Positions 28,721 through 31,486 of a DNA stretch of 40,361 nucleotides are shown piece by piece. The notes below the pieces were generated by a model that did not search any database, was not told where the DNA came from, and saw only the letters and a program-made list of their open reading frames with translations. The stretch comes from an uncultured Bacilli bacterium (GTDB lineage Bacteria > Bacillota_I > Bacilli_A > RF39 > UBA660): NCBI GenBank assembly GCA_947598455.1, contig CANQFI010000002.1, forward strand, positions 1 through 40,361, read 5' to 3'. The translations under genes and the position numbers were made by a program. The first letter of the stretch is position 1. The number at the start of each line of letters is the position of its first letter.

Positions 28721-28746
28721 GAAGAAGTTATGAAACTTCTTCCTTT
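28721..28746. terminator. Bidirectional terminator
   Basis: 9-bp stem GAAGAAGTT/AACTTCTTC (28721-28729, 28734-28742) with T tracts on both strands, between the symporter and the PerM gene. Confidence 0.85.
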
Positions 28747-29822
28747 TTATTGACATAATTTCTAAGTAAATTATAAATAACTGACATAGCTGGAACTCCA
28801 AATAACATTCCAAATACTCCACCAATACTACCACCAATTGTTACACCAACTAAAACCCAAAGACTAGGAAGGCCAACTTTACCACCCACAACTCTTGGAT
28901 AAATAAAATTAGTTTCAATTTGTTGTAATATTAAAAAGAATATTACAAAGATAACACTATCTAATGGATCAACCATAAATATCAAGAAAGTTGCTACTAT
29001 GCAACCTAAGAATGCTCCAAATATAGGTATCAATGCTGTAACTCCAACTAATACTGAGACAGTCGCTGCATAAGGTAAACCAATAATAAGCATTCCCATA
29101 AAACATAAAGTACCTAAAACGCAAGCCTCTAAAACCTGAACCTTAATAAAATTACTAAAAGATGAATAAGACATTCTTCCTAAACTAATAATAAAATTAT
29201 ATACCTTAGTATTACATAACTTATGTAATATTTTTTTGGCTTGTCTTGTAAGTCTTTCTTTATCAAGTAAAACATATATTGCAAAAACAACACCAATGAA
29301 GAAATTACACATAGCACTAAATAATGAATTAGCAAATACCATTGAATAATTAATAATTTTCTCCGAATTCTCCGTAATTAAATTAGTTATCTCTGTTCTT
29401 AATTTATTATTTTCTAAATTAACTATTTCTAATTCTTCTTCATTAAGACCAATTTTTTGTCCTAAAGAATAAATATTTTTTTGATATTCTGGAATATTAT
29501 CAATAAATATTTTACTAGCATTTTGAATTTGTGGAATCAAAATAAACAATATAACTGCTACAAACCCAATAATAAGAGCTAAAGATAAAGTAATACTAAA
29601 TACTCTTTTGCCTTTCTTCATTTTTTTAAGTATTCCATCTTCTATCATTTTTACTAAAACATTTAATATAAAAGCAATAATACTTCCAATAATAAAAGGC
29701 AAAAACAACTTAAATAAATTTTTTAATATATCAGCTAACCAACTATAATTCATTAAACATACAAATAATATAATTGCATAGGTAATTAACAATATTTTAT
29801 CCTTAAAATCTTTTTTTGTCAT
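28728..29822 (-). CDS. AI-2E/PerM family membrane permease, second copy
   Basis: 364 residues with about eight hydrophobic segments. The family's conserved C-terminal region is present (ALIPIFGAFLGC about 254-265, then LQQIETNFIYPRVVGGKVGL and GGVFGMLFGVPAMSVIYNLL). Substrate unknown. Its ATG overlaps the TGA of the VanZ-like gene by four bases (ATGA), so the two are translationally coupled and probably work together. It is a family member like the gene at 2539-3555 but differs in its middle loop and C-terminus. Confidence 0.88.
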   Translation of the reverse strand: MTKKDFKDKILLITYAIILFVCLMNYSWLADILKNLFKLFLPFIIGSIIAFILNVLVKMIEDGILKKMKKGKRVFSITLSLALIIGFVAVILFILIPQIQNASKIFIDNIPEYQKNIYSLGQKIGLNEEELEIVNLENNKLRTEITNLITENSEKIINYSMVFANSLFSAMCNFFIGVVFAIYVLLDKERLTRQAKKILHKLCNTKVYNFIISLGRMSYSSFSNFIKVQVLEACVLGTLCFMGMLIIGLPYAATVSVLVGVTALIPIFGAFLGCIVATFLIFMVDPLDSVIFVIFFLILQQIETNFIYPRVVGGKVGLPSLWVLVGVTIGGSIGGVFGMLFGVPAMSVIYNLLRNYVNKKEEVS

Positions 29823-30541
29823 AATACTCCACCATCTTCTAAAAATAATATTTTATTTATAATCTTCTTAATAAACTTATTATTTATTAATATATATATT
29901 ATCATAGTTCCACTAATATTTAAAATATAATCATCAATATCAAAAGCTCCACTATTCATCAAAAACTGACAAAATTCAATCCCAATAATAAATAAACTAG
30001 CAATTATAAAGAATTTATACCATTTATTAATTATTGATATAATTCTTGGTATAAAGAATGCTAACGGAGTAAAAGCAATTAAATTACCCACAATATTACG
30101 TAAAAAATATTCTAAACCCATTCGACCATTTTTATAAGCATAATAAAAATTATTAATAGTTCTAAATGGTATTGTATTAGCAGTAATTTGAAAAGCTGTC
30201 TTCATTTTTTCAATATTCAAAATATCATCCATTCGATTAATTAAGTAATTTCTGCCAAAATATTTATCAAATAACGTTAAATTAAGAATCATAATTAAAT
30301 ATAAAATAAACCAAAATATTATATTAAATTTAGATAATTTATCAAAAATTTTATTTTCAGTTTTCTTAAAAAAGAATAAACCACAATACATTAAAATTAC
30401 TACTAATAAAACTATTTTTATTCGATCAATTGGAGATGTAACATTAATTATCGAAAACTCTAAAATTAAATAATATACACTTAACAATGTTGCTAAAATA
30501 TAACTAATTACACCAACAATATAATTTAACTTATTTTTCAC
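29819..30541 (-). CDS. VanZ-like membrane protein
   Basis: 240 residues with about six hydrophobic segments. VanZ family landmarks are TIPFRTI (about 123-129), RNIVGNLIAFTPLAFFIPRI, IGIEFCQFL and the FDIDDYILNISG end motif. VanZ-like proteins are membrane proteins of unknown mechanism, some giving low-level teicoplanin tolerance. The start is GTG after GGAGGTG. The gene follows the structured RNA at 30582-30918, whose terminator ends about 40 bases upstream of the GTG, so that RNA may be its leader. AT-rich -10-like strings (TATAAT) also lie in this 40-base gap, so a private promoter is possible. Confidence 0.85.
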   Translation of the reverse strand: MKNKLNYIVGVISYILATLLSVYYLILEFSIINVTSPIDRIKIVLLVVILMYCGLFFFKKTENKIFDKLSKFNIIFWFILYLIMILNLTLFDKYFGRNYLINRMDDILNIEKMKTAFQITANTIPFRTINNFYYAYKNGRMGLEYFLRNIVGNLIAFTPLAFFIPRIISIINKWYKFFIIASLFIIGIEFCQFLMNSGAFDIDDYILNISGTMIIYILINNKFIKKIINKILFLEDGGVL

Positions 30542-30581
30542 GATACACCTCCACTATTATAATTATAGCAAAATTATAACC

Positions 30582-30918
30582 AAAAAAAAGATATAGCATC
30601 TGTCAACGCTATATCCCTGGTGGAAAATATCACTAAAGCTATTTGACAGAATAACTTTGACGATACTCACTGATCTAAAATCCACCACCGTACGTACAAC
30701 TTAATAGTTCAGCGATTCGTAGATGGATTATTTTTCTGCAAAACTTATTTTAAAAAAATAAGTAAGGTAATAACAGACCATATTTCAGATCATAGGATAA
30801 TAAATAAATTATTATCAGGGATATTATAAAAACAATATCCAATACATATAATAAATTAATAAATTTACTATATAGTATTAAGAGAAAAATAACATTTCCA
30901 TCTACTTTACTATCAAGT
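30582..30918 (-). ncRNA. Unassigned structured RNA, about 335 nt, promoter to terminator
   Basis: The 420-base gap between 30541 and 30961 has no ORF but is highly ordered on the minus strand. Its parts are: an outer 8-bp stem GTAGATGG/CCATCTAC (30898-30905 with 30719-30726); inside it three hairpins, GGATATT/AATATCC (30819-30840), GATAATAA/TTATTATC (30796-30816) and a 9-bp ACTTATTTT/AAAATAAGT (30743-30763); and a second domain closed by TGGTGGA/TCCACCA (30681-30687 with 30618-30624) containing an 8-bp hairpin (30636-30657). The RNA ends in an 8-bp terminator stem GATATAGC/GCTATATC with eight U (30582-30615). I could not match it to RNase P RNA, tmRNA, SRP RNA, 6S RNA or a known riboswitch. 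It may be a free RNA or a leader of the vanZ-like gene. Confidence 0.65.
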
Positions 30919-30924
30919 AATATT

Positions 30925-30953
30925 ACTATATCACTATTTTTTTATTCAGTCAA
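30925..30953 (-). promoter_or_regulatory. Promoter of the structured RNA
   Basis: TTGACT (30948-30953), 17-bp spacer, TATAGT (30925-30930), directly after the stop codon of 30961-31272. Predicted start near 30918. Confidence 0.75.
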
Positions 30954-30960
30954 TACATTT

Positions 30961-31272
30961 TTAAAAATTTTTTAATTCTTCTTCTCTTATTTCTTTTAAT
31001 CTAGCTTTAACAAGTAATATAAGTTCCATTGAAGCATTTACTTTAGGCAAAACTATCAAACTATCCTGTAATTTAACCTTAATACTTTTTTCTGCATTTA
31101 CTATACTAGCTTCTTTATGATAATCAAAATTTTCAATCGGATTATCTCTAATATAATCTTTTATATAATTTTCTATATCTTTTAAAACATATTCTTTTAA
31201 TTCATAATTATCCATTTCCCTAACCCCATAATAAGCACCTACTAAATATCTAAAAGTATCTTTTAAATCCAT
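30961..31272 (-). CDS. Small helical protein of unknown function
   Basis: 103 residues, mostly predicted alpha-helical and charged, with no TM helix and no Cys. An N-terminal LKDTFRYLVGAYYGVREMDN segment is followed by long helices ending RLKEIREEELKNF. Not recognised. Possible starts are TTG at 31290 and ATGs at 31284 and 31272. The last follows CGTGAT at the spacing used by other genes here. It stands alone, upstream of the structured RNA. Confidence 0.6.
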   Translation of the reverse strand: MDLKDTFRYLVGAYYGVREMDNYELKEYVLKDIENYIKDYIRDNPIENFDYHKEASIVNAEKSIKVKLQDSLIVLPKVNASMELILLVKARLKEIREEELKNF

Positions 31273-31486
31273 ATTATCACGCATAATCAATTAATAACAA
31301 GTTAATTAATATTTCTTATTGATTGATCCCTTTCTATTTATATTTTTTTATTATACAACTAGTTATATGATAAAAATCACACTATAGATTTGTTACTATA
31401 TCACAGCCATTTTACGAACTACTTCAGAGTGACCAACTCCATTATAAATTATATCATAAATATATAATTTTATATTTTAAATATGA

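What the first reader, a model, noticed from the sequence alone, without database searches (positions are those of the whole stretch)
30582..30918. Apparently undescribed structured RNA with its own promoter and terminator
A 420-base gap without ORFs holds a promoter (TTGACT-17-TATAGT), a terminator with eight U, and at least six long paired stems, including an 8-bp stem (GTAGATGG/CCATCTAC) joining positions about 170 bases apart. I could not match it to tmRNA, RNase P, SRP, 6S or any riboswitch whose core I know. It is either a free RNA of about 335 nt or a long leader of the vanZ-like/PerM operon.
Basis: partly seen in the sequence, partly recalled or inferred. Interest (0 to 1): 0.85.

Follow-up and report, generated by a model that had tools for sequence, protein, structure and literature searches.

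The report
New self-pairing structured RNA family
A gap between two genes in an uncultured gut bacterium holds what looks like the gene of a roughly 340-letter RNA that is not in the RNA family library searched here, and the related copies found keep a short self-complementary stretch, which suggests that two copies of the RNA clasp each other.

Summary
Window 30918-30582 (minus strand) looks like a free-standing noncoding RNA gene with promoter and terminator and a fold far more stable than shuffled sequence (z -9). It matches no Rfam 15 family (relatives: 39, 68). I collected 39 further copies, all from genomes of one order of uncultured Bacilli. Covariation supports an interlocked core: P1, P2, a pseudoknot PK crossing P1 and P3, hairpin P4, terminator, and a P4-loop/terminator-loop contact (36 of 40 CUGUC/GACAG, 3 CUGAC/GUCAG, 1 CUAUC/GAUAG). 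Its centre changes in compensating fashion, which one chain cannot pair with itself, so the best reading is a homodimer. Neighbouring genes differ, and 7 of 40 copies face a close opposite-strand gene downstream, so it is not a leader. Expression and dimerisation are untested. It resembles OLE, ROOL and GOLLD in style, not by model match. The role is unknown; I favour a trans-acting dimeric scaffold.

The parts
30582..30918 (-). the RNA gene, about 337 nt, from the first base of P1 to the end of the terminator U-run (the true 5' end is inferred)
30925..30953 (-). sigma-70 type promoter TTGACT-17-TATAGT with TG before the -10
   Evidence: 34 of 40 copies score at least 9 of 12 at the matching place against 5 of 40 random in-RNA positions
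30909..30918 (-). P1 5' strand ACTTGATAGT
   Evidence: (8 of 8 core pairs, G-U allowed, in 40 of 40)
30699..30708 (-). P1 3' strand ACTATTAAGT
30898..30905 (-).
   Evidence: permutation test; 4-sequence consensus
30719..30726 (-). P2 3' strand CCATCTAC
30727..30897 (-). variable 5' domain of AT-rich hairpins inside P2
30709..30715 (-). pseudoknot PK, 5' strand TCGCTGA
30667..30673 (-). pseudoknot PK, 3' strand TCAGTGA
30690..30697 (-). palindrome GTACGTAC (12 nt, 30699-30688, with G-U pairs): proposed dimerisation site
30681..30687 (-). P3 5' strand TGGTGGA
30618..30624 (-). P3 3' strand TCCACCA
30628..30665 (-). P4 hairpin carrying loop CTGTCA (30649-30644)
30600..30604 (-). GACAG in the terminator loop, partner of CTGTC 30649-30645
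30582..30618 (-). intrinsic terminator hairpin and U8
30562..30570 (-). TGCTATAAT, possible extended -10 element of the vanZ gene's own promoter
   Evidence: read; inference, not in the list
29819..30541 (-). downstream VanZ-like gene (followed by the AI-2E/PerM family gene 28728-29822); not part of the RNA

Best explanation
The locus is a stand-alone gene for a structured noncoding RNA of a family absent from Rfam 15. The RNA starts at P1, folds into a core in which pseudoknot PK interlocks with P1 and with P3, and is closed at the 3' end by a contact between the P4 loop and the loop of its own terminator. The self-complementary stretch between P1 and P3 is not needed for any of these helices and pairs with the same stretch of a second molecule, giving a homodimer. 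It acts in trans, most likely as a structural or protein-binding scaffold, and not as a leader of the vanZ/PerM operon. Shown by sequence: the gene signals, fold, covariation and conserved self-complementarity. Inferred: transcription, dimerisation in cells, and the scaffold role.
For: z -9.0 for the window RNA; in a reduced set of 28 copies the median z is -5.8 and the weakest -3.4 (30 shuffles each). On the 33-sequence MAFFT alignment A4, covariation score 0.450 against 0.238 +/- 0.011 shuffled (0 of 500) and at most 0.152 slid; 31 of 37 pairs have changes on both sides. Own strands pair better than swapped strands in 0 of 2000 permutations for PK, P4, terminator and palindrome and 2 of 2000 for P3 (23 sequences), and 0 of 2000 for P1 and P2 (28 sequences). 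Palindrome: 40 of 40 copies have at least 8 self-complementary nt (G-U allowed) against 4 of 42 chance pattern hits; in 28 reduced sequences the mean is 12.2 against 9.1 in dinucleotide shuffles (highest of 2000: 10.9); the inner ten bases give 130 Watson-Crick, 9 G-U and 1 other pair; 16 different 8-nt cores. Loop contact: 36 CUGUC/GACAG, 3 CUGAC/GUCAG, 1 CUAUC/GAUAG of 40; the four variants came from a model that left both loops unpaired. PMC12286853 (section 8 read) uses the same palindrome-switching argument for intermolecular pairing in OLE and GOLLD. Neighbours are diverse: 40 of 75 neighbour entries scanned, 31 with a Pfam match, to many different families.
Against: No transcript data and no experiment. 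With G-U allowed, stretches of about 9 nt are expected in segments of this composition; taken singly, 18 of the 34 copies printed reach p below 0.05 against mononucleotide shuffles, and the window's own does not (p 0.10). In 2 of those 34 (L060, L074) another 8-nt stretch of the same RNA could also pair fully with the palindrome core, G-U allowed. P3 is the weakest helix (own better than the median cross in 14 of 23); P1 hardly varies (10 of 28). Among the 33 copies of A4 the loop contact does not covary (422 of 2000 permutations as good), so its covariation rests on 4 sequences, and targeted searches added none. The bracket structure counted was derived from the same sequences, and 6 of 500 shuffles reached 31 pairs with double changes. 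The family is patchy (6 of 41 family genomes, three of them in the model's own training set). The scaffold role is a guess by analogy.
Confidence: 0.66

Rival explanations
1. The RNA is a monomer; the palindrome is a DNA-level site, for example bound by a dimeric protein.
For: 30 of 40 copies have at least 8 nt of perfect Watson-Crick palindrome, visible in DNA as well.
Against: The cores differ in sequence (16 different 8-mers), while one protein's site would be kept; 10 of 40 copies fall below 8 nt of perfect palindrome and reach it only with G-U pairs, which mean something only in RNA; 9 of the 10 non-Watson-Crick inner pairs in the reduced set are G-U. The place is fixed between two RNA helices.
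Confidence: 0.12
2. It is a 5' leader or attenuator of the vanZ/PerM operon.
For: The RNA sits directly upstream of a VanZ-like gene in the window and L001-L006, and upstream of an AI-2E family gene in L045.
Against: In the other 32 of 40 copies neither gene is the next one in the mechanical gene calls; in 7 of 40 the next gene is on the opposite strand within about 60 nt (L067; L071; L076, L077, L083, L084; L130, four kinds of gene). The terminator hairpin belongs to the conserved fold.
Confidence: 0.06
3. The palindrome forms a small intramolecular hairpin.
For: The 12-16 nt copies could in principle form 4-6 bp hairpins.
Against: The central bases, which would be the hairpin loop, are self-complementary in 40 of 40 and switch between CG, UA and AU steps, once GC; computed hairpin energies were 0 to -0.6 kcal/mol against -10.2 to -18.5 for the duplex in the 34 copies printed before one search stopped.
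Confidence: 0.04
4. It is a far-diverged member of a known family (raiA/ModT, OLE, ROOL, GOLLD, 6S, RNase P, tmRNA).
For: Stand-alone gene, pseudoknots and terminator recall raiA/ModT, which has two pseudoknots (passages of PMC11706538); raiA itself was not found over cut-off in 12 genomes that carry the new RNA, so the two were not seen side by side.
Against: No Rfam match at E up to 1 in 8 loci with divergent copies, only a tRNA at gathering score in 19 loci, none in the window; ARAGORN finds no tmRNA in the window. The raiA search crossed no cut-off in its 14 control genomes either, so it has no positive control.
Confidence: 0.08
5. It is chiefly a selfish or hitch-hiking element.
For: Patchy, in changing places, two copies in some genomes, tandem in L070.
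Against: No transposase, integrase or phage structural family among the Pfam matches of the 40 neighbours scanned; promoter, fold and contacts are kept; no real copy among the 34 viral contigs that match a strict pattern. Terminal repeats were not searched for.
Confidence: 0.1

Closest known systems
OLE RNA (homodimer)
   Same: Bacterial structured RNA forming a homodimer; a loop palindrome that switches sequence while staying self-complementary (PMC12286853, section 8).
   Different: No model match; here the palindrome is 8-16 nt in a linker between P1 and P3, while the paper describes an internal tetranucleotide in loop L9.3.
ROOL and GOLLD RNAs
   Same: Ornate RNAs of unknown function with pseudoknots and intermolecular kissing contacts (passages of PMC12286853).
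   Different: No model match. The paper's ROOL is 659 nt and many GOLLD RNAs exceed 800 nt, against 254-430 nt here; those lie in phages and prophages, often near tRNAs, this one beside mostly housekeeping genes and in no viral contig that looked real.
raiA motif / ModT RNA
   Same: Stand-alone, trans-acting, SigA-type promoter, terminator, two pseudoknots (passages of PMC11706538).
   Different: Its 209-position model gives no match here; raiA was resolved as a monomer (PMC12286853); I know of no conserved palindrome in it (recalled).

Membership tests
Any of the 4227 families of Rfam 15 | score above the family's gathering threshold | tested here: not met
   window: 0 matches; 19 loci with relatives: only a tRNA elsewhere in L068; 8 loci at E up to 1: none
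OLE RNA | match to the OLE covariance model | tested here: not met
OLE RNA | RNA homodimer | not testable with these tools
   only covariation of a palindrome consistent with it
ROOL / GOLLD | match to the covariance models | tested here: not met
ROOL / GOLLD | phage or prophage setting, large size (as described in PMC12286853) | tested here: not met
   254-430 nt; no phage family among Pfam matches of 40 neighbours; viral contigs negative for the pattern
raiA motif | match to RF03072 | tested here: not met
   no match at the RNA; 0 of 12 genomes over cut-off, but also 0 of 14 controls
tmRNA | tRNA-like ends and tag reading frame | tested here: not met
   ARAGORN 0 genes in the window; no shared ORF seen among the 40 copies
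cis-regulatory leader or riboswitch | sits upstream of, and in line with, one kind of gene | tested here: not met
   diverse downstream genes, 7 of 40 on the opposite strand within about 60 nt

The most novel reading that the evidence does not exclude
This is a further class of bacterial RNA, unrelated to OLE, ROOL and GOLLD, built to work as an RNA-only homo-oligomer. The drifting palindrome is a private clasp by which each RNA recognises its own kind (two genomes even carry two copies with different palindromes), and the CUGUC/GACAG contact may also run between chains, closing a ring or chain of more than two subunits. Use of the terminator loop as a contact would tie assembly to completed transcription.
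Probability: 0.3. Interest if true: 0.88.

Novelty: new variant of a known kind. Interest (0 to 1): 0.72.

Why it matters
[quoted passage not shown] A family in which the self-pairing site has drifted through 16 different 8-nt cores while staying self-complementary is an unusually clean comparative case that RNA-RNA assembly itself is under selection. At 254-430 nt the RNAs are short enough for native gels, mass photometry and cryo-EM, so the question of whether such assembly matters can be tested with compensating base changes.

Tried and rejected
Rfam at relaxed E-values on the window region gave only a CRISPR repeat and two snoRNA families at E 1.5-9.3. BLASTN of the window RNA against phages and plasmids gave only short pieces (at most 13% of the query) in 2 and 34 records; no other copy was used as a query there.

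A pattern of three short anchors gave 16 of 386 family genomes and 18 of 385 order genomes; G295 was dropped in both as a chance match (no palindrome, poor P1), leaving 15 and 17. The same pattern in 395 class genomes gave 7 genomes, of which only G002 is real (the other six by eye). The control pattern read backwards gave 4, 4 and 9 hits in these three searches. Because the pattern fixes CTATYARG, CTGTC and GACAG, the constancy of those letters among its hits means nothing; PK, P4, palindrome and terminator stems were not in the pattern. A stricter pattern gave 34 viral contigs: 27 were printed, six more repeat the same 90 bases, and L100, not printed there, was looked at. None has an adjacent palindrome together with a good P1; the nearest, L102, has a 10-nt palindrome, but farther from the anchor.

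Model R2 found 6 of 41 family genomes, three of them in its training set, and 3 of 296 class genomes under strict filters. Patterns for the rarer loop pairs gave 2 of 156 and 13 of 146 order genomes; only the already known G024 and G013 are real (the rest judged by eye). The raiA search had no positive control. ORFs inside the RNAs: the longest per copy is 10-55 aa, none shared by eye.

Literature: searches listed no paper on such an RNA in these bacteria; apart from PMC12286853 (section 8 and passages), PMC11706538 (passages) and PMC8040213 (abstract and one section) I saw only listings. PMC8040213 reports thousands of microbiome candidates whose sequences I could not look up, so an earlier nameless prediction cannot be excluded.

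Full report
WHAT IS THERE. The gap between the 109-aa ORF (31290-30961) and the VanZ-like gene (30541-29819), all on the minus strand, has no ORF of 60 aa or more. It has a promoter-like TTGACT-17-TATAGT at 30953-30925 and one strong terminator at 30618-30587 with eight U; promoter-like sites alone are common in this AT-rich DNA (21 found, 15.9 +/- 4.6 expected). The 339-nt stretch between folds at -97 kcal/mol against -60.9 +/- 4.0 for shuffles, z -9.0. No Rfam family matches it.

RELATIVES. The VanZ protein has 43 relatives in the protein search, itself included. A genome scan with an alignment of 20 of them gave 37 loci; six of these, L001-L006 (MAG records titled 'uncultured Bacilli bacterium', one 'Candidatus Coprovivens excrementavium'), carry a related RNA directly upstream of the gene. 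NCBI places Coprovivens in Bacilli incertae sedis; I recall such genomes being filed under order RF39 in GTDB but did not check. Further copies came from model R1, by eye beside the 109-aa gene (L060), from a three-anchor pattern (15 of 386 family and 17 of 385 order genomes after dropping one chance genome) and from model R2 (L126, L127, L130, L131 and, beside the 109-aa gene, L059, L062, L063). In the closest genus 12 of 15 genomes carry it when all searches are put together; the other three were searched with R1 only. R2 found it in 6 of 41 family genomes, three of them in its training set, where the pattern had found 3, so the pattern undercounts. In two draws of class genomes (395 by pattern, 296 by R2) the only real copies were in genomes that also belong to the family (G002, G013, G146). 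Nothing wider than the class was searched, apart from viral contigs, phages and plasmids. In all I analysed 40 copies including the window.

SECONDARY STRUCTURE. The order of parts is: P1 5' strand at the start; P2 enclosing a variable 5' domain; PK 5' strand; P1 3' strand; palindrome; P3 5' strand; PK 3' strand; hairpin P4; P3 3' strand; terminator. PK crosses both P1 and P3. On MAFFT alignment A4 (33 sequences) 81.5% of cells pair against 68.0 +/- 0.8 in shuffles, 31 of 37 pairs have changes on both sides (26.0 +/- 2.0; reached by 6 of 500 shuffles), and the covariation score is 0.450 against 0.238 +/- 0.011, or at most 0.152 when slid. The alignment was not fitted to the structure, but the bracket structure was voted from these same sequences. 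A second test swaps strands between species: in 23 sequences under 80% identity, PK, P4 and the terminator each pair better within a molecule than in any of 2000 permutations, P3 in all but 2; in 28 sequences (those 23 plus L126, L127, L130, L131 and L062, added without re-clustering) P1 and P2 beat all 2000. Own pairing beats the median cross in 23 of 23 for PK, P4 and terminator, 14 of 23 for P3, 23 of 28 for P2 and 10 of 28 for the little-varying P1. P1 does vary in compensating ways, for example CUUAAUAG/CUAUUAAG, GUUAAUAG/CUAUUAAC and UCUAAUAG/CUAUUAGA. The 28 RNAs fold with z from -10.5 to -3.4 (30 shuffles each).

LOOP CONTACT. The P4 loop carries CUGUC and the terminator loop GACAG in 36 of 40 copies; in L127, L130 and L131 they read CUGAC and GUCAG, in L126 CUAUC and GAUAG. 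Among the 33 copies of A4 there is no covariation to see (422 of 2000 permutations as good), as the search pattern had fixed these letters for most of them. The four variants came from R2, in which both stretches were unpaired loop positions. So the contact is supported by two kinds of compensating change, though in few sequences; two searches aimed at such variants added none. Whether it is within one chain or between chains is open.

PALINDROME. Directly between P1 and P3 all 40 copies have a self-complementary stretch of at least 8 nt counting G-U pairs (39 of at least 10, 32 of at least 12; Watson-Crick only: 30 of at least 8), with 26 different strings and 16 different 8-nt cores; 42 chance hits of the anchor pattern, repeats among them not removed, give 4 of at least 8 and none by Watson-Crick alone. 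In 28 reduced sequences the mean length is 12.2 against 9.1 +/- 0.4 in dinucleotide shuffles (maximum of 2000: 10.9) and 6.4 in mononucleotide shuffles; within the same RNAs a median of 3% of 16-nt windows do as well. Self-pairing energy is -15.2 kcal/mol within species against -8.1 across (0 of 2000 permutations, 23 of 23 better than the median cross). Of 140 inner pairs 130 are Watson-Crick, 9 G-U and 1 other; G-U preservation, as between the near-identical L076 and L077, points to RNA and not DNA. The central bases switch between CG, UA and AU steps, once GC, while staying self-complementary. A single chain cannot pair neighbouring bases with each other, so this is evidence for pairing between two molecules; the same argument was made for OLE and GOLLD in PMC12286853 (section 8 read). 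Taken singly, 18 of the 34 copies printed reach p below 0.05 against mononucleotide shuffles; the window's own does not (0.10). In L060 and L074 another stretch of the same RNA could also pair with the palindrome core, G-U allowed. The window's predicted fold leaves the stretch unpaired.

NOT A LEADER. By mechanical gene calls the 100-110-aa gene is upstream in 11 of 40 copies, vanZ downstream in 7 of 40 and the AI-2E gene in 1, all within the closest genus. Pfam scans of 40 of the 75 neighbour entries gave matches for 31, to many families: alanyl-tRNA synthetase, ribosomal protein S12, topoisomerase, pseudouridine synthase, FtsW/RodA, ABC transporter, rhodanese, desulfoferrodoxin, cation efflux, WhiA, CofD-like and others; no transposase, integrase or phage structural family appears. 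Seven copies face an opposite-strand gene within about 60 nt of their end: a symporter (L067), a weak acyltransferase match (L071), a phosphopantetheinyl transferase (L076 and L083 scanned; L077 and L084 are close relatives) and an aquaporin-type channel (L130). In L067 the same kind of symporter gene that lies beyond vanZ and PerM in the window follows the RNA directly. Promoter-like hexamers stand at the matching place in 34 of 40 against 5 of 40 random positions inside the RNAs. No ORF is shared by eye.

HOW IT PROBABLY WORKS. I read it as a free RNA whose knotted core presents the palindrome as an open linker; two molecules join there by a helix of 8-16 bp set between P1 and P3. The 5' domain, whose size varies (whole RNA 254-430 nt), would be an exposed arm. 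The closest precedent is OLE, a dimeric RNA; hence a trans-acting scaffold is my best guess at the role. This last step is analogy, not evidence.

LIMITS. There is no expression data and no experiment. Relatedness of copies inflates counts of changes, although the strand-swapping and sliding controls address part of this. The library of papers lacks most subscription journals and I could not open supplementary tables, so an earlier listing as a nameless candidate is possible.

Noticed in passing
L070 477-585 and 869-977 (minus-strand coordinates): Two complete copies of the RNA, each with promoter-like site and terminator, stand in tandem about 390 nt apart; both keep palindrome ATGTGTACACAT.
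   Followed up: partly
L083 and L089 (genome G524); L084 and L090 (G503); L052 and L059 (G155): These genomes carry two copies at different places. In G524 and G503 the two copies have different palindromes (ATGTACGTACAT or GTGTACGTACAT against ATATGTACATAT), as if two non-interacting subfamilies coexist.
   Followed up: no
window 30961-31290 minus: A 109-aa protein with no Pfam match; its gene stands directly upstream of the RNA in 11 of 40 copies.
   Followed up: partly
L073, L074, L075, 5' domain: These three share TTGGCTG and GGCGAG on the two sides of a hairpin in the 5' domain, not noticed in the other copies printed there.
   Followed up: no
L127 and L130: One copy lies downstream of a whiA gene and another downstream of a CofD-like (YvcK-type) gene, which I recall as neighbours in many Bacillota; the RNA may have stayed near one chromosomal region there.
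   Followed up: no
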